From Reticulascus tulasneorum (taxonomy: Eukaryota; Ascomycota; Sordariomycetes; Glomerellales; Reticulascaceae): DNA of 64,000 nucleotides. The notes beneath the pieces were generated by a model. The model ran no database searches. It was not told where the DNA came from and saw only the letters and a list, made by a program, of their open reading frames with translations. Each line of letters opens with the position of its first letter. Position 1 is the first letter of the stretch. Of this stretch, positions 1,753 to 23,373 are shown one piece after another. A program made the translations under genes and the position numbers. Location: contig LSAX01000007.1 of NCBI GenBank assembly GCA_001557505.1, forward strand, positions 2,728,001 through 2,792,000. The letters are read 5' to 3'.

Positions 1753-2491
1753 TCACTTGTCCTTGTTGTGGTAGTTGACGTTATCATTCCAGCTGCACTT
1801 TAGTTAGCTTCCTCATTCTTTTGAGAGTCGAATTGCGAAGTGCCCGCTAGAGCCTCGGGGCCTAGCTCGGAGCGAGAGTACTTACAATAAGGTCTGGAAA
1901 CATGTTAGCATTGGCTCTCGATATCAGAAGGAAACAACTCACCTTGTCACCGTTGCCCCACGTGAAGTTTTTGGTGCGGATGTTCTGGTATGGGTACTCC
2001 ACTCGCTCCTCCAGAGGAGGCATATGGCTCCAGTGCTCCCAATGCTCGTTCCACAGGTTGTAGGCGTTCAGGCCGGCCAGAAGCAGGGCTGGAATGCAAC
2101 CACTTCAAATCGTTAGCATCGTATCTTCAGAATCCCTCTCTCCGCGCCTGGCTTCCATAGTCAACTTCCTACCAGCTTCGGAAGCTCCGCTGCGACTCGC
2201 GTAATTCACTCAGAGGGAGGGTGATGTCATACTAGATGGAGATCTTTCGCCAGAGGTCTGCCAGCAGTTAGTACTCGCATCCAGAATGCCAATTGGGCGT
2301 AATTGATGGGGGGACATACCCGTGGTGGCGGCCGCGTGCTCTTTGGCGTGTCGTCGCTCCTTGACGAAGGCGTTCTCGGTGCTGGCCTCGGTGCTTGCTA
2401 GTCGGCGCTGGATGGTGGATCGGATGGCCGGGGAGCGCAGCTGAGCAGCGAAGCGGGGTGCCGCTTGGAACATTCGGCGTTGGGGCAACAT
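1753..2491 (-). CDS. COX13: Cytochrome c oxidase subunit VIa (COX13), five exons
   Basis: Nuclear-encoded subunit of respiratory complex IV in the inner mitochondrial membrane. Exons by splice signal and phase: 2491-2320, 2257-2233, 2102-1943, 1893-1886 and 1792-1753, giving 134 residues. The N terminus is a basic presequence (MLPQRRMFQAAPRFAAQL). One membrane helix follows (about IYGCIPALLLAGLNAYNLW), then the family signature NEHWEHWSHMPPLEERVEYP and IRTKNFTWGNGDK. Exon 2 is only 25 nt (DLWRKISI) and exon 4 only 8 nt (ACCTTATT, encoding T, L and part of F). Both are needed to join the conserved sequence: skipping exon 4 loses the conserved TLFW junction, and reading through it stops after three codons. 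It is divergent from APN2. Confidence 0.92.
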
Positions 2492-3028
2492 CTTGGCGGT
2501 GTTGGTCGGTGGTTTGGTGTTTTCAATGTCGTGATGAGTGAGGTTCGAGATCAGGTCATGTCCCACAAGCTCGGTTACAACGTCAGAAATGCCTTAGTTT
2601 TGAGGCATCAATTGACTGACTGATGGCAAATAGTCACGTGCGGGATGCAAACCCGATTCAAACTTTCTTCAGAAAGACCGAAGAAATTCCGAATATCAGT
2701 AGAAGGTCAGGTGACGTCGCGCAACCGTTCGTGTGTTCCAGGACGAAGTCGCCACTGAGAGATACTGGGGGGCGTCGCGACTGCAGTTCTGACCTAAGAT
2801 GACTGATTTCTGCTGATCTGTAGCCTTTTCCATGAGATATCATTTTGATGGATCTGTAGCGTGGTATCAATAACCTCCACTGATTAATTGTGAATCCGAT
2901 GCATCGTGCCATTGGAGTGCGTCTGTCCATCGCAAAAGGAGTGGGAGTAGCAGAGGGTTCTTGATTTAGTAGACTCCGAGGAATTTCTTGCCCGTAAGAG
3001 CTTGCGACTTCTTAGAGTTATTTGCAAT
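2492..3028. promoter_or_regulatory. Shared upstream region of COX13 and APN2
   Basis: The 537 bp between the two divergent start codons must hold both promoters. I see no gene in it and no motif strong enough to name. Confidence 0.5.
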
Positions 3029-5231
3029 ATGGGGCTTCGGATCACAACTTGGAACGGTAGGTGCCCCTGACCAGTCAAAGCGGCCGCCAGCTGACGAGTT
3101 CTGAAGTCAATGGAATCAGGTACATAGATACTGTTACTGAGCTCATGCCAGCTAGCTGGTTAACCCATTTTCAGGAATCCATTCGGGTATCAGCCATGGC
3201 GAGAGAAGCGAACCTTCCAGGTAGGTCTTGCCAGTCTTTGTTCGTCTCCCAAGTCTCTAACCCCCGTGGTAGGCCATGTTCGATATCTTGGAGGCTGATA
3301 TCGTCATAATGCAAGAGACGAAGATTCAGCGCAAAGATCTCCGAGATGATATGGTTCTCGTTCCCGGCTGGGACGTTCATTTCAGTCTTCCAAGACACAA
3401 GAAAGGTAAGCGACGAGAACAAGAGGTTTGTGCCAGCCGCGTCTAAAGTCAAACTCCTAGGATACTCCGGAGTCGCTATCTATACCCGTAACTCGGTTTG
3501 TTGCCCAATACGCGCAGAAGAAGGCATTACTGGCGTCCTTTGTCCCCCAAACTCTTCAACCAAGTTCCGTGACCTCCCTGAAGACCAGCAAATTGGTGGA
3601 TACCCAAGAAGCGGTCAGCTTGCCGGCGTTGTAGACGATGTGACCCTCGACTCCGAAGGACGCTGCGTGATACTGGAGTTTCCTGCCTTTGTCCTCATTG
3701 GCACCTACAGTCCAGCCAACCGTGATGAATCTCGTGACGAATTCCGACATGGATTCCTCGAGGCTTTGGATGTGAGAGTGAGAAATCTCGTGGCTGCTGG
3801 AAAGCAAGTCATCCTGACCGGAGACTTGAATGTCATTGGCTCCGAACTTGATGTTTCAAACGCGGTGGAACATCTTCGGAAGCACGGCATGACAGTGGAC
3901 CAATGGTTAGGGATGCCAGCGCGGCGTATATTCACCCAGCTCATCTTTGGTGGACGCGTTGTGGGAGGTCGCGACGAAGGGAGAGAGGAGCCTGTGTTGT
4001 GGGACATGTGCCGAATTTTCCATCCAACTCGCCAAGGCATGTTCACATGCTGGGACACCAAGAAGAACACTCGTCCCGCAAACAACGGAAGTCGAATAGA
4101 CTACATCCTCTGCTCGTCCGGCATCAAAGATTGGTTTACGGATTCGAACATTCAGGAGGGTCTCATGGGCTCGGATCACTGCCCTGTGTTTGCAACACTT
4201 CCACACCTGGTGAAGTCTGACGGCAGAGATACCCACGTACTGGACTTGATGAACCCAGACGACATGTTCCGAGAAGGCAAGCGTTTGAGAGAATGGGCCC
4301 CAAAAGATCTTCTACCCATGTCTGCGAGATTGATCCCCGAGTTTGATCGTCGACGAAGCATTCGAGATATGTTCATGAAGAAACCAACAACAATTCCCAC
4401 AGAAATACCTACCGAGCCTTCAATTCTGGTTAGCGATGGAGGCAACGCATACACCCCGACGGAAGTTCGAGATCAGGACCCTCCATTGACCCCAAAACGT
4501 TTAGAAACGACCTCTCAAGCAACCCAGGAACGAAATACTCTACCCGCAGATGATTTCAGCCCGAAACCACAAAAGAGCGATACCCTCTACAAGAGACCAG
4601 CCGAGACAGGCTCCTTGGCGAAACGACCACAGAAGAAGAGCAAGGCGGCGTCGGACGCAGAGACACAATCGAAAGGGAACGCGGGTCTTTCTCAGAGTTC
4701 GTTGAAGGGATTCTTCAAACCCAAGCAGCCGGCCGCGAAGCCAGCAGATAACAAAGAGGCCACGAGGGACAAAAGGGAGGCAAGCAGTGTAGCATCCCCG
4801 AGTAAAAGACAGCCCCTGGAGTTCATGAGGTCCCAGTCCGAGGTTTCGGAAGGCAAGGCTGAGACGATGTCACCAAGCAAGCAAGTCACAACGCCATTGT
4901 CGACTTCGGCCATTGAGGATGCTAAGGATGTCTTTGATCCCATACAGGCAAAGGAATCATGGTCGAAACTCCTAGGCAAGAGAGTAGTTCCGAACTGTGA
5001 GCACGGTGAGCCTTGCATAAGTCTCTTGACCAAGAAAGCTGGTGTCAACTGCGGTTAGTACACATGTACCACGAGCCCTGTTATTTATATCATTGCTAAG
5101 TTTGTCCTACAGGAAGATCATTCTATATTTGCAGTCGGCCACTGGGTCCATCGGGCGAGAAGGAAAAGGGGACCGAATGGAGATGCGGGACATTCATCTG
5201 GAGCAGTGATTGGAATGGATCACAGCCTTAG
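3029..5231 (+). CDS. APN2: AP endonuclease 2 (class II, DNA base excision repair)
   Basis: Apurinic/apyrimidinic endonuclease and 3'-phosphodiesterase of base-excision repair, acting in the nucleus. Exons: 3029-3056, 3107-3119 (13 nt), 3175-3220, 3273-3405, 3461-5053 and 5113-5231, giving 643 residues. The EEP nuclease fold shows ITTWNVNGIR at the start, QETK (Glu44), GDLN (Asp195, Asn197) and GSDHCPV (Asp312, His313). A disordered middle carries a PCNA-binding box QSSLKGFF (about 485-492). The last exons encode a GRF-type zinc finger (CEHGEPC ... NCGRSFYIC ... WRCGTFIW). Without the last intron the protein would stop right after NCG and lose half of the finger, which supports the splice at 5053/5113. 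It is a canonical flank of the MAT locus. Confidence 0.95.
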
Positions 5232-5849: not shown

Positions 5850-6919
5850 TCAGTAGGAACCATCATAGACCGAGGGTTCCCAATTGTAGCTCGCCCAATC
5901 TCCCATCAATGGCATCGATGAGCCAGTTCCATTGTTCATGACTGGAGCATATTGAACCCAGTTGAAGTTCGAAGTCCAATCATGCATAGACATCATTTGC
6001 GTACCGGGAGACGCCATGGTTGTAGCGTTGTTGAGATGTACGAGCGAATTACTGTCGTGGCCGAAGCTTGCAGGTGAACCTGAGGTAGTAGATGCGACCA
6101 TGGAAATATCAGAGCTGATGTTATTCTGTGAAGTCTGATTCGCAAGCTTTGCAGCACTCTGCTTTCGAAAATGCTTCTTCGTTCCAGCATTTCGAGTCGT
6201 GTACTTGTAGTTAGGGTACATCTTCTTGTGCTTTTGATCTTCCTCAATAGCCATCTGCTTCCAGTGTGACTTTTCAGATTCAGATAGGCCCTTCCAAAGA
6301 ACGGAGCACACAGCAGCTGTCATAGGATTAGACGAGTTTGTGAAGTGAGAATGAAACTTACAAATTTCAGCAGTTGAGAAGGCCGGGTTCTCAGCACGGA
6401 TCTTTGGGGATCTCGCTTTGCGAAATAGAATCCAACTGTTTGCCGGACGAGGAATACGCTTGACTTTGCCAGACTTCTGATTGAGCTGGCTGTGCTCGCT
6501 GTCGATAACATGAGACAGGTGCAAGTCTGCGGTGGCTAATTAGCTGACCGGTCTAGAACAGGGATATGCTACTTACCGCCAACGTTCATGATCCACTGCT
6601 CATTCAGAAGCAGTCCAGTAAATGAAGCGTGGAGAGAAATGCGATATCTACCAAGGCTCGTGTTGAGAATGACCATGGCGGCTTGTCCAATTTCACGACT
6701 AGAAAAGGTGAGCATTGTAAGCATCGATGGGAAGCAGACATACTTGAAGTTCTCTGCCGCAATCTTGACAGCTGCCAGATCCAGGGTAGAGGGCAGATAG
6801 ACGTGAATATCAGCTACATCGGCGACATTTCCAAGATGATCGCCACCAGGTCCAATGATGACGAAAGTCATGGGCACCTCAGACGTTGGTACCATGATAG
6901 CGCTGGCGTTTCCACTCAT
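5850..6919 (-). CDS. MAT1-2-1: MAT1-2-1 mating-type protein (HMG-box transcription factor)
   Basis: Master transcription factor of the MAT1-2 mating type. Exons: 6919-6744, 6698-6577, 6526-6362 and 6316-5850, giving 309 residues. The MATA_HMG box spans roughly residues 122-195: KRIPRPANSWILFRKARSPK, then AENPAFSTAEIS, then VLWKGLSESEKSHWKQMA and the basic end HKKMYPNYKYTTR. The third intron splits the Ser codon in the middle of the HMG box, a position typical of MAT1-2-1 genes. The first intron (GTATGT to TTCTAG) could be read through but removing it restores normal phase. The C-terminal half is Ser/Asn-rich and disordered. The frame is intact, so it is likely functional. It sits next to APN2, tail to tail, and is divergent from the gene at 7380. 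Confidence 0.95.
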
Positions 6920-7379
6920 GGTAGATGCACACGACGATAGTGAGTTTGGATCTTTGAGTAGTTAGGAGGAGTTGTGTTGGAGATGTTTGAGGATTTGTAC
7001 AGAAGTGGTGAAGAGAAAAGAATTGGTGAAGAGGAAAGAAGTGGTGAAGAGAAAAAAAGTGTGAACGACGAGATAAAAACGTTGTGTCCTTCCTTCCTCC
7101 TTCCAAGAGCAAGTCGCTCCCACCCAGGTGTCTTGCACCTTCCAAGATATATCTAGGGCACACTTACCCTCCCCCCACCTGGTAGTCCCAATGCTCCTTC
7201 CAGTTCCCAATTACAATGCCCCATTTGACTTTCTTGTCTCCTGATTTTGGCAAGGGTTTCTTTTTATTCTGCATACTCCCAATAAGCAGATTCGTCACTC
7301 ATGTTCCACTGTCTTTGAAGCGTCTCAGCAAGTCACCATTCTCAAAAATTCCAACTCCGGCATATCATACTTGTCCAAG
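6920..7379. promoter_or_regulatory. Divergent promoter between MAT1-2-1 and the 7380 gene
   Basis: The 460 bp separates the start codons of two head-to-head genes and so contains both 5' UTRs and promoters. It holds an 18-bp purine-rich tandem repeat at 7005-7058. Confidence 0.5.
7005..7058. repeat. Three tandem 18-bp purine-rich units
   Basis: Units start at 7005, 7023 and 7041 and follow the pattern KTGGTGAAGAGRAAARAA. They are nearly identical, lie about 90-140 bp upstream of the MAT1-2-1 start codon and probably fall in its 5' UTR or promoter. Confidence 0.8.
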
Positions 7380-8876
7380 ATGAATTCAATCATGACTTTC
7401 TCCCCATTGTGGAGCGAGCCCGCCTTAAAGCGACTCAAGCACGATGATGTGATTCTCTTACGTGAAGAAGGTGTATCGCATGCCTCTTCGCTCCGTCAGT
7501 CGGGTCATTTGCAGTTACCAGCGGACGGTGAAGAAGGTCAGTGCCATAAATATAGCATCTAATGGCTTGAAACTGAGTATTAAGCTTTTACCATGATTGT
7601 GGCAGAGGTTATAAGCCTTTTGGCGAACACGAGCCAGGCGGAGATGATGGCGAGAATGAGAGACCAAGCCTCCATTTTCTTTTTCTGGAGTCCAGATGAG
7701 GCAGTGAACATTTGTCTCTGTCTCTGGCGAATCAGCTCGCTCCCTGCGCTCCTTGGAAAGCTTGACGATGACTACATTGACACACATATTGCGAACATCG
7801 GCCAGTGGGCGATGCTTATGACACTCCGAGACTGGAAGCCTACTGCAGCCACGGCCCATTTCAGCGTCTTGGAGTTGCTGATAAGTAATGCTGCAGTTTC
7901 AGTTGTTGCAACTGTACTCGTGATAACAGAGCACTTGTGTTCTCACAGCTGTCTCTCTGACTATGTCGAAACGGGTTGCAGGTCGAACGAAAATGGAACA
8001 GCTGCTCTCAAATTATTTCTACGACGTGCAGCGGAGCTGGCTGGATGCGGAGGTGACAATCCTGGCGCGGACCGCAGAATACTTGGGGTTGGAATCAAGC
8101 TTCAAGCCGACGCTACGGGGCTACTTTCTCCTAGCCACGTATTGGATTCACCAAGTGGTATGGTGTTGAGCCTTCAACCGTTGCCTGAAACCCGCGAATC
8201 CGCCTCTCCTTGGGCGCGCCTTTTCAACCCAAAAAAGAACCCACTGACGGGCAAGGTCGACTTCATGTATCCCACCCGGCTCAATTTCATTCATAGGCAT
8301 TACCGGCGACAAACTCGAGCGTGGCTCGCAAAGGGCCTGAAGAGCGGGCATCTCAAAAAAAGGGATTTCGAGGAGATGCGAGAACAAGAGAAAGAAGTGA
8401 GACACCCGCCGTGAATGATATTATGAAGGCACTGACATATTAAAGGCCGATATCGAAGCAGCCTGGAAAGATGGAATTTGTTATGATCCTGATGATACTT
8501 TGCATAAGCAGGTAAGTCAGAGGTCACCGGGGGAAACAAATCGTGCTAACTCATAGCGGGTACTAAACCCAGAGCGGCTCACCACCATTCCCAAGAAAGA
8601 TGTGTTGAAGCTCATCAATGGCAAGGATACAACCGTTGATATTGTAGGAGTGCATCATCGGAAGCCAAGAATGTCACTAACACCGCTTAGACCAAACCGC
8701 CTTTCGCTGACAGTGAGGGCAATATTGTGCCCGCTTTTGCCAATGCCATCTGCGCTGCCTTGGACCGTTCGTTTATTGCGAATCAGAGAAATGGGGCCTT
8801 AGACGTAGGCGAAGGGCCTGAATGGCCAACACACAATCCCGAAGATCCCTACGAGATGGCCAAGCTCTCGTTGTAG
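7380..8876 (+). CDS. Unidentified MAT-locus gene, multi-exon; candidate MAT1-1-2
   Basis: Certain parts: ATG 7380, exon 1 to 7536, exon 2 from 7606, and the last exons ending at 8396, then 8446-8511, 8557-8643 and 8691-8876 (TAG). These junctions have good donors, CTRAC branch sites and consistent phase. The middle is ambiguous. Read without further introns the protein is 428 residues. With introns at 7885-7948 and 8158-8255 it is 374 residues and gains the plausible stretch SNYFYDVQRSWLDAEVTILA. The C terminus reads TKPPFADSEGNIVPAFANAI and ends EDPYEMAKLSL. I cannot identify it by homology. Size, exon number, location beside MAT genes and the KPPF motif suggest MAT1-1-2, whose PPF domain is named for invariant Pro, Pro and Phe. 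A MAT1-2 accessory gene is the alternative. Confidence 0.6.
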
Positions 8877-11042
8877 TGGTGGCCTACGGTGCATGTTTCA
8901 TTGCACGATATTGGGAAGGGATGCAATAACTGTGAATTGGGGATTCCCAGCTGAAGTAAGTCTCGGACACGGACAACAATGTATGAGTACCTAGGAAACA
9001 TCTCACGATGATGATGATCGCAAAGCTGTGGGGGGATTCTTATGATGGCAGGCTACTTTCGCCGCGCGATCTCCAAGATCGTAGCTGTTTAAGAGGAATT
9101 TAACAATGTCATGATACGGTATCACACTGTTTGGATAGCGTCCCGAAATGCTGTAGCAAAAATGCGAAAATGCCATTATATCAAATGTGCCGGGTCAGTA
9201 GCCAATCTTAATTGGGCGTGGACAACTGCCCCGATGAGAGAGAGCGAGACCAGAATAGTACCACAACAGTGCTTTATCCTGTCGGCTTCGAGAGGTGTTA
9301 GAATCCCATTAATCTCCACGCAGCTTTTACTTGTTGGCCGTCTATAATATATGCAAATTAAATCCACCTGCCATCGATCCCAGTTCGCCTCAAGCAACTC
9401 GTGATAATTCGCGACCTCCTAGATTATTTTCATTGGTTCTAGAGTTGGACCAACCAGATAAGCTATTCGAATCTTCTGTATGGACAACAACTGCACACTC
9501 CAACGGCCAGGAGCCATAAACTTTGTGATCTGTCACGAACTGATAATGCCCCTTTCTTTGGGCGCTGCCGATGACACCAGCTTTCTGTTGATAAGAACAA
9601 AAGCATTTTCTTGGGTACATTGATCATGATGCGGCTACCTATTGGTGGTCTTAGAGATGAGGGTTTGGGAAGAGGATCTACAAAGTAGCGAGTGTTCACT
9701 GTTGATGATCATTGGGCTAAGTAAGAGCTATTTGCTGCGCAGTTAGACCACGATGGTTAGAAGACATATGGTTGATAATTGGCCCTCTGCACTGTTTTGG
9801 TTCTTACAGAGCTTGAGACCGAACGAAACTCACGTCATTAAGACGTTGCAAATGTCCTAGAACGTCCTTGAGAGACACGCCTCCAAAGTTATATGGCTGA
9901 GAATGTTGGACGCCGTCAAGGGCAAATTTTGTTTTGCAACCCAATTCTAGAGGCGCATGGCATTGCCGCAACGAAGTTTCGAATCTATCTTATAGCGGCC
10001 ATTGCTAGGTAGTGACAAATCAATCCTGCCAAAGATGTGGAACGCAACCCAAGGGTTCTACCTGGTTGAAACACAAGGTGACTGCTACCTTATGATACAG
10101 GGAGTAAGACACTTGAGGCAGCTGATGCGAAATGCGTTGCTCAAGTAAGAAGAACCAGCTTAGATTCAATTTGTGCAGGACATTGCTCAGTGTGCTTGGT
10201 GTTCAGGTTGGGGTTGGCATGCTTTAGCAAGACTGTAAACGCATCTCCATTCTGCGACATTATGTCTCTCACTCTGATAACAATAGCATTCATAAAATGC
10301 TGAAACGACCGACTACGGTCTGGCCATGATGCATTACCTCAGTGGCACTTACACTGACTGGAGAGATGGCCGACAACGCATGTGGATGGCATACGACCAC
10401 CTTGAAGCGGGTGGTCAAGATACTCTCAACGAGTTTTGCCCACTACCCGCCTACTTTACTTCAATTCATGCGAAAAATGTAGCCACACGGGTTTTCTGTG
10501 CCAGCTTTGGAAACCTAGAGGTATTCTGGGACGACGTGTTGTTCATATGCTGTTCGGGTACACTTCGGGCGTTGCAACAGATGCCCAGTCCAGGCTGTGC
10601 CTAAAATTTCTTCGGCAAAGCTTTATTCCGTCGCCAACATGGAGCCTGGCGCTTAGTGGGTACGTGACCTTGGTTTTTAGGTACTTGGATGGTCGTGTCT
10701 GGCTGACTGGTCTTGGCATTGGAAGCTTGCGCATCACTTAATCCCCCAGCCACATTTCTTCTGGAAACAATTCGTACGCATCCCACCTTCACATTGAAGT
10801 TTGTCCAGGCTGACGACTCTTCCCCGCCACTGCCTGGGCACTTGCGACACTTACTTTTGACGAATCTTTTGTGTTCCGCCTAGCAGCAAGTTGCGGCCTA
10901 AATCCTAGTGGGATAGGCTTCGTGTGACGGAAGCTACCTTACATCACGGAGCGGCTCTCGACTCTCGAGCCAAACGTCAATTCCTCTTAGCTGCCTACAC
11001 TACACTTTCTTTCTCCTTGTGCACAAAGCAAAGCTCGTCAAG
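8877..11042. other. Gene-free 2.2 kb between the MAT gene and SLA2
   Basis: Only short open frames with no domain content, including 10326-10604 and 9111-9347 on the plus strand. I looked for an HMG box (MAT1-1-3) and an alpha box and saw neither. The right end is the SLA2 promoter and 5' UTR. Confidence 0.5.
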
Positions 11043-14000
11043 ATGGCTTCCGTACTTCAAACTACCCATACAAAGTTAGTGATTTGGTTTCTGAATGAGC
11101 CTCGTGGTGGTCTGCATCGTAGTGTTGCTAACTCTCAAATCGTAGAACCGACCAGGAGCTGGCGATCAATATCAAGAAGGCGACAAGCCCGGACGAGAGT
11201 GCTCCAAAGCGCAAACATGTTCGCGCTTGCATCGTTTATACCTGGGACCATAGGTCTTCCCAGGCTTTCTGGGCCGGTGTCAAAGTGTAAGTGTGAATAT
11301 CCCCGTCTCGACAATTTATCTAACCAGGTCATCCCATCCAGCCAACCTATTCTCGCGGACGAGGTCCAGACCTTCAAGGCTCTGATTACGATACACAAAG
11401 TCTTGCAGGAGGGGCATCCCAATACGCTGAAAGAGGCAATGGCGAATCGGAGCTGGATAGATAGCTTGAATCGCGGAATGGCCGGGGAAGGCGTGCGGGG
11501 CTATGGCCCGTTGATCAGGGAATATGTCTATTACCTGCTAGCCAAGCTTTCCTTCCATCAGCAACATCCCGAGTTCAACGGCACCTTTGAATACGAAGAG
11601 TATTTGAGTTTGAAGGCTATCAACGACCCAAACGAGGGCTACGAGACCATCACTGATCTCATGACCTTGCAAGACAAGATCGAGCAGTTCCAAAAGTTGA
11701 TCTTTTCACATTTCAGAAATGTAGGGAACAACGAGTGCCGCATTTCAGCCTTGGTGCCTCTTGTTCAGGAAAGTTACGGTATCTACAAGTTTATCACAAG
11801 CATGCTGAGGGCAATGCATTCCAGTAAGCTGCGACCACCCTTTACTCGATACCTTAGTTAACACAATTTAGCAACTGGCGATAACGATGCTCTTGAACCT
11901 CTTCGTGGAAGGTACGATGCTCAGCATTACCGACTAGTCAAGTTTTACTACGAGTGTTCCAATCTTCGATATTTGACGAGTTTAATTACCATCCCGAAGC
12001 TGCCTCAAGATGCCCCGAACTTGCTGGCTGAAGATGATGAGGCGCCGGCTCTGCCAGCTCGCCCAAAGCAAGAAATTGAGCGGCAGCCTACTCCCCCACC
12101 CGCGCCAAAATCCGAAGAACCCGATGAGATCTCCGAATTTTGGAAGAATGAGCTAGAGCGTCAAAATCGCGAATACGAAGAGCAGCAACGAGTGCTAGAG
12201 GAGCGCCAAAACCAGCATTTGATGAACCAGCAGCAGGCACAGCTTCAAGCCCAGAGGGATTTTGAGGAGCAACAACGCAGGCTAGCCGAGCAGCAACAGC
12301 GAGAGCAAGAAGCACTGCTAGCTCAGCAGGCTCAATGGCAAACCCAAGGCAGACTCGCAGAGCTTGAAAGAGAAAACCTGAACGCCAGAGCACAGTATGA
12401 GCGTGATCAATTGATGCTGCAGCAGTATGACCAGAGAGTGAAGGCTCTCGAAGGAGAGCTGCAGCAGTTGCAGGGCAGTTTTAGTCAGCAGATCGGCAGT
12501 AAAGATGATCAGATTCGGGCGTTGCAAGAACAGGTCAATACTTGGCGGACCAAATACGAGGCTCTGGCGAAGCTATATTCTCAGCTGCGGCACGAGCACC
12601 TGGATCTGCTCCAGAAGTTTAAATCCGTACAACTGAAAGCTGCCTCGGCCCAAGAAGCGATCGATCGACGCGAAAAGCTCGAGCGCGAGATCAAAACGAA
12701 GAATCTCGAACTTGCAGACATGATCAGAGAAAGGGACCGGGCAATGCACGACAAAGACCGTCTTTCAGGGAGCAACAAGGACGAAGTGGAGAAGCTGAAG
12801 CGAGAGTTGCGCATGGCGCTTGACCGCGTAGACAATCTCGAGCGAAGCAAGGGAAACGAGTTGTCCACCATGTTGGCGAAGTACAATCGTGAAATGGCCG
12901 ACCTCGAAGAAGCCCTTCGGAACAAAACCCGGGCATTGGATGATGCCCATTCTAAGGTCAGGGATGGAAACTCGGACCTCGAGCAACTGCTTCGTGACAA
13001 GGAGGAAGAGCTGGAGGTTTACAAGGCTGGCATGGACCAGACGCTCATCGAACTCAATGAGTTGAAGCTGAACCAGGGGGACACAGACCATGCCCTGGAT
13101 GGACAAATTGATGCCTTGATCATGGCGAACGTTGATAAGATCAACGACATTATTGATTCTGTCTTGCAGGCTGGCGTTCAGAGGGTCGATGATGCGTTGT
13201 ACGAACTGGACTCCACCATGCAGGCCGGCAACCAAAATGCATCCCCTTCTTACGTCTTGTCTCAAATTGAGAAGGCTTCGGCAAATGCCATGGAATTTGC
13301 TACAGCTTTCAACAACTTTATCGCCGATGGCCCTAATGCTACCCACGCAGAGCTGATCAAGACTATAAACGTCTTCTCAGGTGCGATAGCAGATGTTTGC
13401 AGTAACACAAAGGGTCTCACTCGCCTCGCTACGGATGAGAAGAAGAGTGATTCCCTAATGAACGGGACTCGACAGTCTGCCCAGTCTACCGTCAAATTTC
13501 TGCGTGGCCTTCAAAGTTTCCGCCTAGAAGGCATGGACCCTATTCAAAAGACGGATGTCGTGATTAACAGCAACAACGATGTGCAGATGAATCTTCAGAA
13601 GCTGAACAAACTTGTAGAGATTTTTGCACCAGGCTTCGGCAAGCTGGCCAATAACAAGGGTGATTTGGGCGACCTCGTGGACCAAGAACTCAGCAAGGCC
13701 GCTGATGCTATTGCTGCGGCAGCAGCAAGATTGGCCAAACTGAAGAACAAGCCTCGGGATGGCTATTCCACGTACGAGCTCAAGGTCCACGACTCTATTC
13801 TGGATGCCGCCATGGCCATCACGAACGCCATCGCCCAGCTGATAAGAGCAGCCGCCGTGACCCAGCAGGAGATAGTCCAAGCAGGACGTGGATCTTCCTC
13901 GAGAACCGCCTTTTACAAAAAGAACAACCGATGGACGGAGGGGTTAATTTCGGCCGCCAAGGCTGTCGCCTCATCTACAAATACTCTGATTGAGACAGCT

Positions 14001-14439
14001 GATGGCGTCTTGTCGAACCGCAACAGCCCAGAGCAGCTTATCGTAGCCTCAAATAATGTTGCGGCGTCTACTGCCCAGCTTGTCGCGGCCAGCAGAGTCA
14101 AGGCCGGGTTCATGAGCAAGAGCCAGGAGAACTTGGAGCAGGCCAGCAAGGCTGTTGGGGCGGCCTGCAGGGCCTTGGTGCGTCAAGTGCAGAGCATGAT
14201 CAAGGATCGCAACCAGGACGATGACCAGGTAGACTACACGAAACTCGGAGCGCACGAATTCAAAGTACGAGAGATGGAGCAGCAGGTAAGACTACAAACT
14301 AAGCCCCGCTTTGGAAGGTATCGACAAGTGACTGACGTATGTGTGCTACACTTAGGTTGAGATCCTGCAGTTGGAGAACTCGTTGGCTGCAGCACGACAC
14401 AGGCTAGGGGAAATGCGCAAGATTTCGTATCAGGAGTAG
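11043..14439 (+). CDS. SLA2: Sla2/End4 endocytic actin adaptor (ANTH - coiled coil - talin-like I/LWEQ)
   Basis: Links clathrin coats and PI(4,5)P2 membranes to actin at endocytic sites. Exons: 11043-11074, 11146-11286, 11342-11823, 11872-14285 and 14356-14439, giving 1050 residues. The N terminus is an ANTH domain (TDQELAINIKKATS, KHVRACIVYTWDHRSSQAFW, TFKALITIHKVLQEGHP). A Gln/Glu-rich coiled coil follows (about residues 290-600). The C-terminal part is the THATCH I/LWEQ module, seen in NNRWTEGLISAAKAVASSTN and LIVASNNVAASTAQLVAASR, ending in a short helix VEILQLENSLAAARHRLGEM. SLA2 is normally the outer border of the MAT locus; here it lies between two MAT genes. Confidence 0.96.
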
Positions 14440-16926
14440 GGCGGTGATGGGGCGGGAGGGGGAATCATGTTGGTTGAGGGTGATGAAGGCAGATTAAGTT
14501 GTCGGGAACGCCGCTAGCTAGACGCGTTCGGCAGTTCCTTAGGATCACGCCACCTGAAGAAGGCATTAGTACTGCGTATACACAAGTTATGCGCTCATTG
14601 CCTCACTGGCCCAATCGGATGTGTTGGATGTCTACTGGCAGCAGTGCGGTACATATTGTGGTGTGCACCTCTACGGAACACAAAATTCCAAGTACCAGGA
14701 ACATGTACACCTTGAACCTGTGGCTATGCATGTAATATCATGATCCGACAAGTCGGTCGGAAGCCCTGTTGTGCTTTGGTTCTTGGAAGTGATACGGACT
14801 AGTGGATTGGTGGATTTAAAAAAGAGGCGTTTGTTTAATCCGAGGCAGTGTCTTGCTCGTCTATGTGTATGAGGATCTTTGTTCATGGCGTTTTAGCCCC
14901 ACTGCATTTCCGCGACCAAATGATCAGTAAACCCACCCAGCCAAGAGGCTAGCATGGAATCCCACAAGACATATCATGTCTGGTTTTGCCAAGTAATGCC
15001 GCTGAGCATACCGCTGTGCCTTGCATACCTTGTCTAAGATTGTAGTCAGCTGTTTCTCTCAGTTATTGGCGGTCCGAATGCGTATCGCACTCTGCGTCCA
15101 GGGTTTCCGATTCCCCCGCCATGAGCAGCTATCCTTCTTTGGCGATGATAGCCAATCCACTCCACTGCTCACCGATCCTAGCCATACAGAAAAACCCCGG
15201 TGGTACTGGTTGTGATGCGGTGTTAGCGCCAACAGGACTGCCGGTTTACTTTAGCGTAATGGAGGAGCAGCTGACTGCCTTTTCGTCGCAACTTGATCGC
15301 CACTTCTCACTAAAGGCTTGTCCCGATAGAATACGATGCATCGACTGGCGCCAACATCATATCTGTGAGCAAGATGCAGCCCAGTCCCAAAGTGGCGATG
15401 CTGCAGGGGCCCCACGCCTTTCAACATACTAGTATGTGGTACAAATGATGGAGTGGATATCGAACTTGGTGTGCTGAAGATGGAAAGATGAAATCAACGC
15501 CACAAAGTCGAGCTCTTTATGCAACCCCTCACCATCCCCCGCCCAGCCTCGAAGCCCAGAAGTATTTTTGTCATTCAAGCTCAGATTACTTATGCTCTCA
15601 GGCACTTGCTCGGGTATGTGCGCTTTAAAGACTACATACAAAGGCGAAGACACGCGGAGTGACGCCACGTTCAAATCGTCTTGCACAGGACGGTTGCTAA
15701 GTTCTCAAACTTCAGCCGGAGTGAAAGTGGACAGTGTCATAGTTAGATGTTGAATTCCTTGCAGGAGCTCCAGAGAGATATTCTGGGCCTAAGTAGATAA
15801 GGATGGGTGGCAGGTTGGGGTCAGCATTGCTTTGGGATAAGGGGAGCCGGGCCAAATTCCAGGCGCGGAGACAGTCGCCTCGTTCTCCCTTGCGCTTTGT
15901 CGCCCGCACTAGTCTCAAAGAGTACGGTACATGCTAATTGTTAGGTACAACGCAGTGTAGTCTCTAGCCGTAGATCGCTGCATCAATCGAACCAATCCTG
16001 CATCTGCTCTTGGCTTTGGTGCGGGTGCATCCCGCCTGTGTCTTTGACCACATTCCATCTGCTGCTCTGCTCTCCGAAATCCCCCCCTGTAGAGTTCCTT
16101 GTCCTTGACCTCTGCTGGCCGATCGATGCAAGTTGCGTATGTCCATCACACACGCCCCTTAGGGAGAGGTGAAGATGAAGAGGGCGTCGTTGCTCGGTGG
16201 AGTGAAAGACCGATCACTTGTGCTTAGCTCAATTTGGCGGAAGGTGGAATGCAGGCAATTGACATGGGGCTTGGAAGCCTGGATGGAGGGGCGAGACAGA
16301 TCTACATCGCAAATACAGGACGACGCCACACTCCTGCTAATTCGTACAGTACGTCTGTAGGTACGAATAAACGAGGAGCTACGGTGACCGAAAGCTGAGT
16401 CGCGCAGTCATCACCATGTAACTTTCAGAAAACCTGGTGCTTGATCGATCCAAACACACCAGGATCCCGGAGTCGACCAGTCACCAGGTTTGCGGCCAGG
16501 CTGTGGAACCAGGAATTCCCGTTAAGACATGGGTTGGAGGCTGAACTAGCTCTGCATTAGCGAGCTTGGCAGCACATGTTAAACCAGACGACCTTGGATG
16601 TTTTCAACTTCATAGTTGCTTTTTAGACGTGATCGTCTGGGTCCCAATGCATTTCTCGGTACCCAATCATTTGGCCTTCCTCTTGCTATCACTCTCATTT
16701 AGCATGTCTTGCTTCTGCAATGTGTTTGATGTTTATTGAGCCGGTCTACCATACAGTGCAGACCATGAAGGTTGCGCTCCAGGACCCCCCGCCTTGGCTT
16801 ATCTGAGACCATCTCGTCGCCCTTCAAAGTCTTTACCACCGTTTCCTCCCGATCTTGTACTCCACAAGCCTTGAAAAAGGAAACCCTGAATAATCAAGCT
16901 TCATAGTACCATGAGTTGGAATTGTC
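14440..16926. other. Intergenic 2.5 kb between SLA2 and MAT1-1-1 (convergent)
   Basis: No gene or domain recognised on either strand. SLA2 and MAT1-1-1 are transcribed toward each other, so both 3' UTRs fall here. If MAT1-1-1 was moved across SLA2, a rearrangement breakpoint should lie in this stretch or in 18162-20013. Confidence 0.5.
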
Positions 16927-18161
16927 TCAGATGAGTGTCTGATAGGAAAGCCCTTCATTGTAGCTAAATCCAGGCTCAGCATCATCGACCGCTATGCGAT
17001 GATTAGTTGTTAACTCAATTATATCATACGGTGCGACTTACTCGCCAAATCAATTGTCATTGTATCTTCAATCACCCCGTCCAAGTGATATGCATTGCCG
17101 ATGTCGAGCATGTCGTCGCTAAATGCTTCAAGATCAATATCTGGATGATGAGTCCGCAAGACGTCATCATAATTTTCTTCGTACGGGTAGGTCTGGACAG
17201 AATCTTGTCGTATAACGGGATACACGGTGGCGGAGCCATGTTGATTGAGGTTGATTCCAACTGCGTTGACATCATCAACGTGGAAGACATTGACACCGAA
17301 TCGGAAGAAGTCATTGTCTGCCGGAACACCAATAATTGTTCCCGCTTGATTGATGGGATCGCTGATGAGAGCGTTTATGAAGTTGACCTTTTTATCATCA
17401 TTACCAGGAGAGCTGAGAGTCATCAAACCAGTGGATTTGGCTCTCATCTTAGCGAGAACGATTGGAGCATGCTCTGAGGAAAAGGCGTTTGGGATGCATG
17501 CAGACAACAAGTCGAGCTCAGTTGTTGGGACGCCACCTGACTGAGTGATTGCCGCGGCTGCGTTCTTAGCCGCTTTTCGATCTTGCACAAGGCCTGGACT
17601 CTCAGCTGAGCTAACTGACCAGAAGAATGTCTGTATGTAAGAATCTGGGGGGACAATCTTCATGATGGGACAGGCAACCCGCAGGAATGGCTTAAGCGGG
17701 CAATTCTTGATACCGACTTCATCGCGGACAAAAGAATATACCTTGGCGATGAGAGTCCAACGGTCGGTAAAATGCTCGCATTGCCACAAAATCGTCGTAA
17801 AGCTTGAGACCTCCTTCTGCTGGATGCGAAGCATTGAGGAGTAATACGCTGTAAGACTGTCAGTGATCCATCCTACACAGCAGGGGAGTTGGTGCTCACT
17901 GCGAAATGCGAGATAAGAATTCAAAACACGCTTGGGTTTTTCACCAGCACCGGCGGTAGTAGCATGTCGCTGGATCAGTTGCCCGCGCTGCTCCGAGGGA
18001 TCTTGATGAACCACTGGTGTCGCCTTGCGAACAGCCACGGCTGGATTTGCGAGTTGATCCCGAACATCCTGCGAGAGGAGGCTGATCACCTCTTGCGGAG
18101 AGAGAGTGGCGAGAGTCGCCATGATGGCCGCCTTGTCAACTGTAGAATGAACTGTCGGCAT
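16927..18161 (-). CDS. MAT1-1-1: MAT1-1-1 mating-type protein (alpha-box transcription factor)
   Basis: Master transcription factor of the MAT1-1 mating type. Exons: 18161-17900, 17848-17042 and 16991-16927, giving 377 residues; Met14 (18122) is an alternative start. The alpha box begins at about residue 75 with KPKRVLNSYLAFR, crosses the first intron (51 nt) into TYYSSML, and continues through the typical blocks ILWQCEHFTDRWTLIAKVYS and FVRDEVG to CPIMKIVPPDSYIQTFFW. The first intron lies within the alpha box after the LAFR motif. The second intron (GTAAGT, TAAC branch, ATAG) replaces the read-through end with the exon TVDDAEPGFSYNEGLSYQTL. All frames are intact. It lies on the distal side of SLA2 rather than between APN2 and SLA2, and SLA2 and MAT1-1-1 converge. 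Confidence 0.95.
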
Positions 18162-20013
18162 CTGGGCGACTGGGTGGATGATTTGTTGTTTCGTTTTGGC
18201 AGACGTAAGAAGAGTGTAAAACAGCCTGTTTTGAGATCTCCGAAGATGAGAGAACGGGAAAGCCTTTTTGTGATTATCAAAATATTCTGATGAGTGAAGT
18301 TTGGAAGTAGGAAGGGGAAGGAAGATTTCGGGGGCGCAGGAACAAAGGAACCCGTTTCATTTGACTTGAGAAAAGGCAGGTGCGGCCACCGTCACTGCCA
18401 GCACCGTGGTTATGCTCTTCACCACCGGGTCAATTGACACTGTGAGGTGGCATCACTTGCAACGGGCCTTGCCACTCCGCTCTTGATAGGCACCGCTGAG
18501 GTTGTTGTCAGGCAGTACTAAGTTGTAGTTGTTGCCGCCCCCGCATCTCTGATGATGTCTCCTTCTTCGCCGATTAAGCTGTAGCTATTTCGAGATCTTG
18601 TATTGCAGGCCGACCTAGATCGTTATGTAGCAGGTCATCATGATGGGCAAGACCATTATCCGCTCGATTCATTGAGTGTTTCCCACCAGACCCCGATCCA
18701 TACCACTTGCAGGTCGCCTGCCACCAACTAGACTCATATCTTGCCCCATATGCTGCTGTCGGTTTGTGTCTATCTACCTACAAGTCTGACTGGTTTCCTT
18801 GGCTTTTTGGATGCCAATTTTCTTAATTGGCTTGACCGGGAGACGAAAAGCATGGCTTGGACAGCCCGGAATGGCTTGGGCTAAGGCATACTTATGTGAA
18901 CTATCATGATAACTTCTTGCTCCTGGTCAGCCAGTAGAACCTGAGTCATATTCTGCTATCTGTCTAAGGCTCGATACGTGGCAATCATAAGTCAACAGCA
19001 TCCAGGCTTCCAAGAGCCTTAAATAAGCAAGCCGATGGGAAGCTTGCGGTGATCAGCTCGACACCAGCACTGCTTAGACGGAGGTTGACAGAGATTTCCG
19101 GTTATTCTAGAGGCCTGGAGGCCTTTACAGCAATGTGTTAGCCTCTTTTCATTGTAAGCTTCAGGTTGGGAATGATCTGGCTAAAATCACCACAAAAGTA
19201 GATATAGCGTACAATGAGACTACGTACAAAGCAAGACACTGGCAAACAGATATCATACTTGCTTCCTCATTGAAGCATGACATGCCAAATAAGCACATGC
19301 TTTGTGGAGTTGGTAAGGTTGTTGATATTTGACGCTCGAGAAGGGATTATCGAATGATATTGGTATTTCAGGGGGACATTCGGCGGCAAACGAAGACCAG
19401 AACCTATCCGCCCGTCTATGTTGAAGCTGCTTTCAAGACGGCGATTTGGGCTCATAGTCGTTAGTTGAAGAATGCTCAGCGAGTTTCAACTCACAATAGA
19501 CAAACTGACTATTCCGACGTTGATATCTACAAAAAAGCAGATTTCAGAAGCACGACTGCTTTTGATTGCAGCCAGTGTACGTTCAAACGTTACGGCCACC
19601 AACAAGGCCATGACAGTAGTATTTGAACTCTGGAATACCCATCGCTAAATCGCGCGGAGATTGCGGTGGAATGAGGCTAGGATTCGACGGAGCACAGGGA
19701 TATGCTGTCGATGGAGAAAAATCACTACACGGTAGGAGTTGTGAACGAAACATTGAAATTAAGGGGTGAGGCGTCATGGCTTGGTGCGCGAACGAAGAGT
19801 TTGGATGATATCACTGGTTCCTGAGGGAGCAACTAGATCGCAGCGTCCAAGAGCACATCCTGCGAGCTCGGGATATTATGAGATGCCATCGGAGTTTCAT
19901 TCCTATGGACATGCCGAAACCTCAAATGCCTTCCATGCGCGAGTTCTTTCCGATCCGCACGTAAACACCCCATGCAAAGAGAAGCAAGCAATTCTGCCAT
20001 CCCCCAAAGACAC
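18162..20013. other. Intergenic between MAT1-1-1 and RPL21
   Basis: 1.85 kb without a recognisable gene. The left part is the MAT1-1-1 promoter and 5' UTR; the right part is the RPL21 3' UTR. Confidence 0.5.
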
Positions 20014-20694
20014 TTAAATCGTAGTCTCGTACGCGATAGGAGTGACCGTCTCTGGCGGGTTGTCCTTCAGAGATACGGTGCGGGCATCTCTCGGCATAAC
20101 GGGCTGTCTCTTGAGCTGAACGGGCTGTCCCTCGACCTTTGCCTGCTTCTTCAACTCAGCGTTCTGCTTAACTCTTCGGAGGAAGTCGTCTCGTGATCGG
20201 GATGGGGAGATGTGCTCAAGTCGGATGTTGATGCGCTTCTCGATGTATCGGTGCTTGACCTTCTTGTAGATGATTATGCCGACTGCAGCCTTGGCGACGT
20301 TGTAGATGACACCAGTCTTGCCGTGGTAAACCTTGTGAGGCATACTATCCCCATCGTTAGCCCGCCGTTTCAACTCCATCCAGACAGTCTGCATATGCGT
20401 GTGTTTGGCTCTGCAGTGACGAGGAAACATACCCCTTCTGGACAGCACCGTTCGTCTTGATGTCGACAATGTCACCGACTCTGCGTAAAGTCAGCAGCTG
20501 CCAATAGGCTTTCCATCCAGATCCAACTAACCTGTATTCTCGAAGGTACGTAGAGAGCTTGATCATACCCTTCTGGCGGAAGTTTCTGCTGAACGCATAC
20601 TGATCTAAAGTCAGTAATTCGCTCAATCAATTGCACATCTTGCAAAGGAACCACATACTCGCGTTCCCGCGCGAAGACCCGCTGCGTGACCCAT
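20014..20694 (-). CDS. RPL21: 60S ribosomal protein L21 (eL21)
   Basis: Structural protein of the large cytosolic ribosomal subunit. Exons: 20694-20659, 20599-20532, 20480-20433 and 20344-20014, giving 160 residues, the usual eL21 length. Diagnostic sequence: [20 protein letters not shown], then [40 protein letters not shown], and [20 protein letters not shown]. The fourth exon resumes with the Met of GMPHK. The gene is head to head with RPS9 across 286 bp, so the two are probably co-regulated. Confidence 0.96.
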
Positions 20695-20980: not shown

Positions 20981-21738
20981 ATGGCTCCGTAAGTTGGGAA
21001 ATATTGACACTTATTTGCACTGATTGCTAACACTGCTCTAGTCTTTCGTACTCGAAGACATCGAGAGTTCCCAATCGACCTTTCGAGGCCGCCCGATTGT
21101 CAGTATCACCGGCCACTGAACATGAGCTAGCCTCTGTTTAAGTCGATTGTGAATAGCAACTGACTTGATATCAGGGACTCTGAGTTGAAGTCCGTTGGAG
21201 AATATGGCTTGAGAAACAAGCGAGAGGTCTGGCGAGTCCAGCTCACTCTTTCCAAGATTCGACGTGCCGCACGGTAAGGACCTTTGTCGCTTTGGGCACA
21301 TAAATCCGTTGCTAACTTCCCCCAAGTCAGCTTCTCACCCTTGACGAGAAGGATCCCAAGCGACTCTTCGAAGGAAATGCACTTATTCGACGATTGGTTC
21401 GTGTCGGCGTGCTCGACGAGTCCCGCATGAAGCTCGATTACGTGCTCGCCCTGAAGGACGAGGATTTCTTGGAGCGCCGCCTGCAGACCTGCGTCTACAA
21501 GCTCGGTCTTGCCAAGTCCATCCACCACGCTCGTGTTCTCATCCGCCAGCGACACATCCGCGTCGGAAAGCAGATCGTCAACGTCCCGTCGTTCATCGTC
21601 CGTCTTGACTCCCAGAAGCACATTGACTTCGCCCTGACATCTCCCTTCGGTGGTGGCCGACCTGGCCGTGTCCGGAGGAAGAAGGCCAAGGCCGCAGAGA
21701 CGAAGGATGATGGTGGTGAGGAGGAAGAAGAGGAATAG
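20981..21738 (+). CDS. RPS9: 40S ribosomal protein S9 (uS4)
   Basis: Small-subunit primary rRNA-binding protein. Exons: 20981-20988, 21042-21098, 21175-21273 and 21327-21738, giving 191 residues. The first coding exon is only 8 nt (ATGGCTCC). Signature sequence: [40 protein letters not shown], and the S4 RNA-binding domain ([40 protein letters not shown]). The C terminus is a Lys-rich stretch followed by an acidic Glu tail. Confidence 0.96.
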
Positions 21739-21963: not shown

Positions 21964-23373
21964 TTAATGTACAAGCTCGTCCTTCCCTAGAAACTTGGCC
22001 ATTGGGTCATTCGTTGCTGTTCTCTTCCTCCTGTATTCCTCCATTTCAGCTTCGGAGACACCTCCCATCATTTGCTCCATTGTCCGCTTCTTTGCTGACT
22101 TGTCGCTTTGCTTCAATTCCTCTGCATCTCCCTCCTCATCTACAGGTTCTGCGGTCTCTACCGTCTCCTCTGCTTCTTTGATCAATGCAACCCCTGTCCT
22201 TTGACGTTCGGACACTTCCCAGGCGGCCTTGCCTTCTTCACCAGTACAATAGCTATTCTTCACTACAGAGTGACAGCAATAGTATCCCCACTTGAAGCTG
22301 GACCACCAACTCCCCCATACGGAGGTGTGGTTGTGAATGTAGACATCTTCAGGGTATTTCGACTTGGCTGAAACCTTCGGAGCACCTTTGATGGCACCGC
22401 TCTCGTCGTACTCGACGAAGTGCTCAGATTCCGTAACCGCAAGCTCTTTCATGCTGGCGGGCATCTTATACTGCGCATCGTCTCCGTAAAGGTCTCGGAG
22501 CTTCGTTTCTCGCTCTAGGCGCTTCTGCTCTGCTTCCTCCTTTTCCTTCTTGCGGTAGAACTCTCCGGCTGTGGGATTTGCCTGCAAATGCTGACCTGTG
22601 TCGCCAGTCTGCTCTTGTGCTTCCCAAGCGTATCTCTGGGCATTTTCAAACTCGCCTGCGTCTCCTGATGCTCGCATGTATCCTTCCTCGGCGAAAAGAT
22701 TGGCAGCCTTGTCGGCTGTGGCTCCACTGTCAACAAGTGTTCTTGTCTTGGGGTCGTATTTGGCGGATTCTAGATCCAGGTTGAGCAGATACTTCGCAGT
22801 ATCCTCTCGTAACCTAAGCTGGCGTGTTGCTGTGCTCTGGTGTTTGCTCATGTCGGACTCCTCCGCATATTTGTCCCCTTCATCTCTCTCCTCTTCCTCG
22901 CCTTCTCCTTTGTACAAAGCTTTCTTCCTTAACTCCTCCATCTGGTTGAAGTCTTCAACGACGTTTCGATACTCCTTCGCGTCATACCCGTTCCACCTAT
23001 CTCGCTTGGCGTCCCAACCGAGCTTTACGTCTTGAATGACCTCGTCTGCCTGAATGTCTTTGCCTGTCCACTTTGCGCCTTTCGCTCTCGGCCGACTTAG
23101 ACAGTCCTTGGCCTTATGTGTCATTGCTCCGCAGTTTTCGCAGGCACCTTTGCGGTACTTTGTCGCTGCCGCGCCAGCCTTTCGTCCACGATCGTACCAT
23201 TGTGATTCCTCTTTCTTCTTCTGCAGACGTTGATGTTCGAGGTAGTCGGTCTGATCGTCCCCATCTTCGCCCGCATAGAATGGACGCTTACTGATGAACG
23301 ATGGGATGTAAATATTCTCTTCTTTTGAGGCCGCGGAGGCTTTGGAATCTGGTTTTCGCGGTGGCGGAGGCAT
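21964..23373 (-). CDS. SLU7: Pre-mRNA-splicing factor SLU7
   Basis: Second-step spliceosome factor that helps choose the 3' splice site. Single exon, 469 residues; the frame is open 60 codons further upstream, but MPPPPRKPD is the typical start. It has a CCHC zinc knuckle [14 protein letters not shown] (Cys78, Cys81, His86, Cys91). Next comes the conserved block [20 protein letters not shown], then [10 protein letters not shown]. The family motif [20 protein letters not shown] and [10 protein letters not shown] lies near the C terminus, with an acidic and Lys-rich tail. It is divergent from REV3. Confidence 0.96.

What the first reader, a model, noticed from the sequence alone, without database searches (positions are those of the whole stretch)
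5850..18161. Both mating-type master genes in one haploid window: a homothallic MAT locus
An intact HMG-box MAT1-2-1 (5850-6919) and an intact alpha-box MAT1-1-1 (16927-18161) lie 10 kb apart with all exons in frame. In heterothallic ascomycetes these are alternative idiomorphs and never share a haploid genome. Carrying both predicts self-fertility.
Basis: partly seen in the sequence, partly recalled or inferred. Interest (0 to 1): 0.88.

Follow-up and report, generated by a model that had tools for sequence, protein, structure and literature searches.

The report
Both mating-type genes, straddling SLA2
This fungus carries both master sex genes on one chromosome, which probably lets it mate with itself; the unusual part is that one of them lies outside the place where such genes normally sit.

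Summary
The window encodes an HMG-box MAT1-2-1 (5850-6919, minus) and an alpha-box MAT1-1-1 (16927-18161, minus). Both splice open at GT-AG sites, 10 kb apart on a 3.56 Mb contig of a 42.8 Mb, 35-contig fungal genome. One alpha box, one SLA2 and one copy of the MAT1-1-1 surroundings were found. A REV3 tree places the fungus in or next to Glomerellales, outside Colletotrichum and the sampled Plectosphaerellaceae.

The two genes do not share the usual APN2-MAT-SLA2 interval. The order is APC5-COX13-APN2-MAT1-2-1-unknown gene-SLA2-MAT1-1-1-RPL21-RPS9-SLU7-REV3, so SLA2 lies between them. A simple two-strain chimera is therefore unlikely. An alpha-pheromone gene and both receptor genes appear intact. 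No long repeats that could drive switching flank either gene.

Primary homothallism is the best reading; selfing is untested. A heterothallic species with MAT1-1-1 fixed beside the locus remains possible, and this alpha box is the most divergent of 15 compared. Homothallic loci are well known, and displaced MAT genes have precedents in Leotiomycetes. I rate it a new variant of a known kind, more interesting because Colletotrichum belongs to the same order.

The parts
1..1283 (+). APC5 (ANAPC5), end of gene; continues left of the window
   Evidence: L045:6754-8283, i.e. C25:2727754-2729283; Pfam ANAPC5 E=5.9e-37
2210..2593 (-). COX13 (cytochrome c oxidase subunit VIa), main exon
   Evidence: Pfam COX6A E=7.1e-5, 23.7 bits, just under the curated cut-off of 25; position next to APN2 fits
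3310..5058 (+). APN2 (AP endonuclease), main exon
   Evidence: Pfam Exo_endo_phos E=1.9e-12
5850..6919 (-). MAT1-2-1, HMG-box mating-type transcription factor, 309 aa, 4 exons
   Evidence: the one homologue found is Hirsutella minnesotensis HIM_01475, 36% identity over 61%
6983..7072 (.). imperfect 18-nt tandem repeat just upstream of MAT1-2-1
   Evidence: family D1
7380..8876 (+). gene model of unknown function between MAT1-2-1 and SLA2 (435 aa with 4 introns, or a 230 aa variant starting at 7963; start not settled); same position as the Colletotrichum-specific MAT1-2-15, homology untested
   Evidence: gene-model search that favours open length; weakly positive codon score, 0.08-0.11 against 0.22 for SLA2; no Pfam match at E<=10
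11043..14360 (+). SLA2 (ANTH + I/LWEQ), lies BETWEEN the two MAT genes
   Evidence: Pfam ANTH E=6.5e-51, I_LWEQ E=5.9e-50; one I/LWEQ match in the genome
16270..16285 (.). left arm of a perfect 16-nt inverted repeat around MAT1-1-1 (right arm 18999-19014)
   Evidence: 5 of 100 Markov resamples hold at least one such pair, so possibly chance
16927..18161 (-). MAT1-1-1, alpha-box mating-type transcription factor, 377 aa, 3 exons; outside the APN2-SLA2 interval
18999..19014 (.). right arm of the 16-nt inverted repeat
20014..20490 (-). RPL21 (ribosomal L21e), exon
   Evidence: Pfam Ribosomal_L21e E=1.3e-18
21316..21738 (+). RPS9 (S4-domain ribosomal protein), exon
   Evidence: Pfam S4 E=1e-12
21964..23592 (-). 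SLU7
   Evidence: Pfam Slu7 E=7.2e-81
24065..28999 (+). REV3 (DNA polymerase zeta), used to place the fungus

Best explanation
This is the mating-type region of a homothallic fungus of or near Glomerellales in which MAT1-2-1 keeps its ordinary place next to APN2 and a single open MAT1-1-1 sits beyond SLA2, between SLA2 and RPL21. Shown: both genes are open and linked, one copy of each MAT gene was found, and SLA2 is between them. Inferred: every haploid nucleus makes both the alpha-box and the HMG-box regulator. The two would jointly switch on the alpha-pheromone gene, both receptors and the ascogenous programme, so a single-spore culture can self. Inferred too: the layout arose from a normal MAT region by an inversion of a MAT1-1-1/SLA2 segment or by a transposition of MAT1-1-1 past SLA2.
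For: Open gene models with GT-AG introns and strong Pfam matches. The alpha-box intron falls exactly where 3 of 14 aligned homologues (P0001, P0003, P0016) carry an insertion, apparently the unspliced intron; a fourth, P0004, begins inside it. One alpha box found genome-wide. The 14400-21000 stretch and the SLA2 I/LWEQ domain were found once each, on a 3.56 Mb contig. Classical neighbours lie on both sides: APC5, COX13 and APN2 on the left, RPL21, RPS9, SLU7 and REV3 on the right. Fusarium sarcochroum tags FSARC_6220 (REV3) and FSARC_6225 (alpha box) sit on contigs of the same listed length, consistent with an ancestral REV3-SLU7-RPS9-RPL21-SLA2-MAT order. STE2, STE3 and a seven-repeat alpha-factor precursor with a signal-like start and KR sites appear intact. 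The AT-rich block at about 57-63 kb has strong RIP indices; RIP happens in the sexual cycle (general knowledge), so sex probably occurred in the lineage, though that does not tell selfing from outcrossing.
Against: No phenotype, reads or second strain were available. MAT1-1-2 was not found (no positive control), and by eye none of the 7 other HMG matches reads like MAT1-1-3. The alpha box deviates at 12 of 52 positions conserved in at least 90% of the others, against 0-9 for the other 14 proteins, which may mean altered constraint. No a-factor gene was recognised with two patterns. How MAT1-1-1 came to lie there is not shown.
Confidence: 0.73

Rival explanations
1. The species is heterothallic. 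MAT1-1-1 left the idiomorph long ago and is now an ordinary flanking gene present in all strains. Mating type is decided by what lies between APN2 and SLA2 (here MAT1-2-1 and the neighbouring gene).
For: MAT1-1-1 lies outside the APN2-SLA2 interval. Its alpha box is the most divergent of the 15 compared. A MAT1-2 idiomorph with MAT1-1 gene remnants exists in Chrysoporthe austroafricana (PMC10298223, passages).
Against: MAT1-1-1 is a full open gene, not a remnant. No second allele of this locus was available.
Confidence: 0.14
2. [quoted passage not shown]
For: Both master genes are present, as in the self-fertile form of such species (PMC4891775, passages).
Against: The two characterised cases use 146 and 260 bp direct repeats. 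Between the flanks of the MAT1-2 genes (5058-5849 and 8877-11040) blastn shows nothing longer than 23 nt. No exact direct repeat of 16 nt at least 500 nt apart occurs in 2000-24000.
Confidence: 0.05
3. Assembly artefact: a chimera of two strains or nuclei of opposite mating type.
For: Raw reads could not be inspected; the assembly is unnamed.
Against: A simple join inside the idiomorph would put MAT1-1-1 on the APN2 side of SLA2 or duplicate flanks. Here one SLA2 was found and it lies between the genes, 14400-21000 was found once, and the contig is 3.56 Mb.
Confidence: 0.04
4. The displaced MAT1-1-1 has taken on another role, or is beginning to decay, and no longer confers mating identity.
For: Twelve substitutions at conserved alpha-box positions, among them P79V, G163F and G172P.
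Against: 377 codons are open with a conserved intron place and the codon score is highest in the right frame; 8 of the 12 substitutions look conservative by eye; the comparison set holds no close relative (highest listed identity 44%, over 42% of the query).
Confidence: 0.04

Closest known systems
Homothallic Sordariomycete MAT loci such as homothallic Clonostachys rosea (PMC13401452: abstract and passages read)
   Same: Genes of both idiomorphs in one haploid genome; perithecia formed by single strains there.
   Different: There all five mat genes lie in one expanded locus flanked by apn2 and sla2 and include mat1-1-2, mat1-1-3 and mat1-2-9. Here SLA2 splits the pair and only MAT1-1-1 and MAT1-2-1 are recognised.
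Hirsutella minnesotensis 3608 (names only; no paper found)
   Same: An alpha-box protein (HIM_01477) and an HMG-box protein (HIM_01475) two tags apart, on contigs of the same listed length; the only homologue found for this MAT1-2-1.
   Different: Tags two apart leave room for one gene between; its locus was not seen.
Helotiaceae (Leotiomycetes) with displaced MAT genes (PMC10569646: passages read)
   Same: Hymenoscyphus repandus has MAT1-2-1 directly upstream of APN2, outside the interval. [quoted passage not shown]
   Different: Other class. In H. repandus the displaced gene is MAT1-2-1 on the APN2 side. For the three split genomes the passage gives no firm order, so a layout like this one is not excluded there.
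Chrysoporthe and Valsa mali (Diaporthales) loci with a flank gene inside the locus (PMC10298223: passages read)
   Same: A classical flanking gene lies within the MAT locus.
   Different: There it is APN2, COX13/COX6A or APC5; here it is SLA2.
Colletotrichum MAT1 locus (PMC13373834: passages read)
   Same: Contains SLA2, an extra gene (MAT1-2-15), MAT1-2-1 and APN2, listed in the order seen here. a-factor not detected there, nor recognised here.
   Different: No MAT1-1 gene is listed there (that none is known in the genus is recalled). Here MAT1-1-1 is present beyond SLA2. Identity of the extra gene with MAT1-2-15 could not be tested.

Membership tests
MAT1-1-1 (alpha-box) | alpha-box domain (PF04769) | tested here: met
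   E=7.6e-38, 130.2 bits against a cut-off of 28.1
MAT1-1-1 (alpha-box) | intron inside the alpha box at the conserved place | tested here: met
   Directly after LNSYLAFR; insertion at the same place in 3 of 14 aligned homologues
MAT1-1-1 (alpha-box) | conserved alpha-box residues kept | tested here: inconclusive
   40 of 52 kept, 12 changed; the other 14 proteins change 0-9
MAT1-2-1 (HMG-box) | MAT-type HMG box with an intron in a serine codon | tested here: met
   HMG_box E=3.7e-18; Ser codon split by intron 6361-6317; that this position is canonical is recalled
Homothallic MAT locus | both MAT1-1-1 and MAT1-2-1 open in one haploid genome | tested here: met
Homothallic MAT locus | both genes between APN2 and SLA2 (usual, not universal) | tested here: not met
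   SLA2 lies between the genes
Homothallic MAT locus | self-fertility of a single-spore culture | not testable with these tools
   No strain or phenotype
Unidirectional switching locus | long direct repeats flanking MAT1-2 | tested here: not met
   Nothing longer than 23 nt between the MAT1-2 flanks; no exact direct repeat of 16 nt at least 500 nt apart in 2000-24000
Colletotrichum-type MAT1 locus | MAT1-2-15 between MAT1-2-1 and SLA2 | not testable with these tools
   A gene model is there (7380-8876) but no Colletotrichum MAT1-2-15 sequence was at hand
Sordariomycete MAT1-1 idiomorph | MAT1-1-2 and MAT1-1-3 beside MAT1-1-1 | tested here: inconclusive
   PF17043 no match, no positive control; by eye none of the 7 other HMG matches reads like MAT1-1-3

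The most novel reading that the evidence does not exclude
In this early branch of Glomerellales MAT1-1-1 has escaped from the idiomorph and become a fixed neighbour of the locus, so that the interval homologous to the Colletotrichum locus (MAT1-2-1 plus a MAT1-2-15-like gene) is the only part that could still vary. That would be a living model of how an order can drift to a mating system in which the two-idiomorph rule no longer decides sexual identity, of which Colletotrichum would be the extreme. The extra gene would then be a MAT1-2-15 homologue older than Colletotrichum.
Probability: 0.15. Interest if true: 0.72.

Novelty: new variant of a known kind. Interest (0 to 1): 0.5.

Why it matters
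Homothallism from linked MAT genes is common, so the co-occurrence alone is ordinary. The layout is less so: SLA2, the standard border of the MAT locus, lies between the two master genes. A survey that scores only the APN2-SLA2 interval would type this strain as a heterothallic MAT1-2 isolate (inference). The fungus lies in or next to Glomerellales, the order of Colletotrichum, whose lack of a MAT1-1 idiomorph (recalled) is a long-standing puzzle. A relative outside Colletotrichum with both genes gives an outgroup for that question. The REV3 tree puts Plectosphaerellaceae closer to Colletotrichum than this fungus, so it is not a direct intermediate.

Tried and rejected
Unequal-crossover scar: blastn between the MAT1-2 interval (5058-11040) and the MAT1-1 interval (14360-20000) gave only matches of 25 nt or less at E 1.2 or worse. 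Flanks of MAT1-1-1: matches of 27 nt or less, the best the 16-nt inverted repeat at E=0.004. Relics: tblastn of 19 MAT proteins on the whole window found no second MAT1-1-1 or MAT1-2-1 fragment; besides the two genes there were five weak matches up to E=1, the best P0016 at 31647-31811, E=0.009. Transposon capture of MAT1-1-1: the 16-nt inverted repeat pair has no matching target duplication at its outer ends (read by eye). MAT1-1-2 identity for the 7380-8876 gene: no Pfam match at E<=10. a-factor: a strict pattern gave 0 matches. A looser one gave 25 C-terminal matches against 7 for the reversed control. Six of the 25 ended in TGG, not a stop, and were dropped; of the other 19, six (L021, L024, L026, L038, L039, L044) end a peptide of 14-60 residues that starts with ATG, and none convinced me by eye (L024 looks like the end of a Ras protein, recalled). 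Introns were not modelled there, so absence is not shown. Species name: not found; an rDNA search did not complete. The ORFs 10296-10604 and 15046-15432 have no positive codon score and no Pfam match. No solved-structure relative of MAT1-1-1 by sequence. Structure prediction was not used.

Papers: the Verticillium MAT paper PMC4226480 (passages) gave no locus layout for my terms; Grosmannia PMC3583454 (passages) supports SLA-MAT-APN as the Sordariomycete order, but the passages give no orientation of SLA2; the Colletotrichum pheromone paper PMC8661429 is not held. Literature searches; Glomerellales + MAT1-1-1 + MAT1-2-1 returned one paper, on Fusarium graminearum. This library holds only open-licence papers, and of most listed papers I saw only the listing.

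Full report
What is there. Reading and splicing the minus strand gives MAT1-2-1 at 6919-5850 (309 aa; HMG_box E=3.7e-18) and MAT1-1-1 at 18161-16927 (377 aa; MATalpha_HMGbox E=7.6e-38). The modelled introns have GT donors and AG acceptors. One MAT1-2-1 intron has two possible acceptors (6536 or 6527). The HMG-box intron splits a serine codon. The alpha-box intron follows LNSYLAFR, exactly where 3 of 14 aligned homologues (P0001, P0003, P0016) carry an insertion, apparently an unspliced intron; P0004 begins inside it. No transcript data were available, so all introns are models.

The neighbourhood. From left to right: APC5 (to 1283), COX13, APN2, MAT1-2-1, a gene model of unknown function on the plus strand (7380-8876), SLA2 (11043-14360), MAT1-1-1, RPL21, RPS9, SLU7 and REV3. 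COX13 scored just under its Pfam cut-off (23.7 against 25 bits) but lies where expected. The unknown gene comes from a search that favours open length; its codon score is weakly positive (0.08 or 0.11 against 0.22 for SLA2) and its start is not settled. Further right are a PH/MMM1-domain protein, a Mcp5-type PH protein, an ATG3-like protein and a kinase. The Sordariomycete pattern is SLA-MAT-APN (PMC3583454, passages; PMC10298223, passages). Here MAT1-2-1 is inside that interval and MAT1-1-1 is outside it, between SLA2 and RPL21. In Fusarium sarcochroum the locus tags for REV3 (FSARC_6220) and the alpha-box protein (FSARC_6225) differ by five and their contigs have the same listed length, as expected if SLU7, RPS9, RPL21 and SLA2 lie between them; I did not see that contig itself.

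Copy number and assembly. The genome has 42.84 Mb in 35 contigs; the window lies on C25, 3.56 Mb. One alpha box, one I/LWEQ domain (SLA2) and one copy of 14400-21000 were found. Nine HMG matches were found: two are the halves of the MAT1-2-1 box, and by eye none of the other seven reads like MAT1-1-3. The control genomes of these family searches rang in 0 of 14, so they give no positive control. A simple chimera of a MAT1-1 and a MAT1-2 strain would not place a single SLA2 between the two genes.

Who it is. REV3 is 70% identical to several Colletotrichum over its whole length and 65-66% to the listed Sodiomyces and Plectosphaerella. I took 32 of the 120 listed proteins for a quick tree and 21 for a careful one. 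In the careful tree the window falls beside a clade of Colletotrichum plus Sodiomyces, Plectosphaerella and one unnamed row, with 100/99 support for both nodes. So it is in or next to Glomerellales, outside both sampled families. An rDNA search was asked for seven times and never answered.

Mating machinery. A precursor with a signal-like start and seven WCxKPGQPCW repeats lies at C1:4302983-4303702; the reversed control pattern gave 0 matches. STE2 is at C4:1327674, where the two in-frame TGA codons lie in what I read as an intron, and STE3 is at C35:2200501 in two pieces that I read as exons. No a-factor gene was recognised with two patterns; this does not show absence. [quoted passage not shown] MAT1-1-2 gave no match, without a positive control.

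How it most likely works. The best reading is primary homothallism: each nucleus carries both regulators and a single strain can self. Supporting context is the alpha-pheromone gene, both receptors, and an AT-rich block at about 57-63 kb with RIP indices TA/AT 1.16-1.28 and (CA+TG)/(AC+GT) 0.24-0.51, against 0.42-0.87 and 1.14-1.45 in five control kilobases of the window. RIP speaks for past sex, not for selfing, and selfing itself is not shown. Repeat-driven switching is unlikely: the two characterised cases use direct repeats of 146 and 260 bp (PMC4891775, passages), while here the flanks of the MAT1-2 genes share nothing longer than 23 nt. A perfect 16-nt inverted repeat surrounds MAT1-1-1 (16270-16285 and 18999-19014); 5 of 100 Markov resamples contain such a pair, so I do not build on it. 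At 14 nt the region holds 5 inverted pairs, a count reached by 5 of 100 resamples (mean 1.11).

What speaks against it. Between residues 76 and 235 the alpha box differs at 12 of 52 positions that are at least 90% conserved in the other 14 proteins; those proteins differ at 0-9. Two of the 16 proteins (P0009, P0012) were left out of that alignment, and the set is rich in Fusarium and in one group of unnamed sequences, so the contrast may be inflated. It leaves room for altered constraint on a displaced gene, or for a heterothallic species in which MAT1-1-1 is fixed outside the idiomorph.

Comparison. Homothallic Clonostachys rosea keeps all five mat genes in one locus flanked by apn2 and sla2 (PMC13401452, abstract and passages). 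Hirsutella minnesotensis, the only homologue found for this MAT1-2-1, has alpha-box and HMG tags two apart (HIM_01477, HIM_01475) on contigs of the same listed length. In Hymenoscyphus repandus MAT1-2-1 lies directly upstream of APN2, in H. fructigenus the MAT genes are unlinked, and in three further genomes MAT1-1-1 shares a contig end with SLU, DNA pol and SLA in an order that the passage does not fix (PMC10569646, passages). In Chrysoporthe and Valsa mali APN2-side flank genes lie inside the locus (PMC10298223, passages). A displaced MAT gene is therefore known. MAT1-1-1 on the far side of SLA2 I did not find described in what I saw of the papers listed by my searches; most of those papers I did not open. 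The Colletotrichum locus is listed as SLA2, MAT1-2-15, MAT1-2-1, APN2 (PMC13373834, passages). The window has the same order with a gene model in the MAT1-2-15 place, but its identity could not be tested.

Verdict. It is a new variant of a known kind, of moderate interest.

Noticed in passing
   Followed up: partly
about 57000-63000: AT-rich block, 13-21% GC per kilobase, with a strong RIP signature; exact borders not fixed.
   Followed up: partly
16270-16285 and 18999-19014: Perfect 16-nt inverted repeat enclosing MAT1-1-1; borderline against chance.
   Followed up: yes
6983-7072: Imperfect 18-nt tandem repeat just upstream of MAT1-2-1.
   Followed up: no
L015 (G000:C1:4302983-4303702): Alpha-pheromone precursor with seven repeats in one open frame.
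   Followed up: yes
33764-38185 (-): Protein with a Mcp5-type meiotic cortex PH domain near the MAT region.
   Followed up: no
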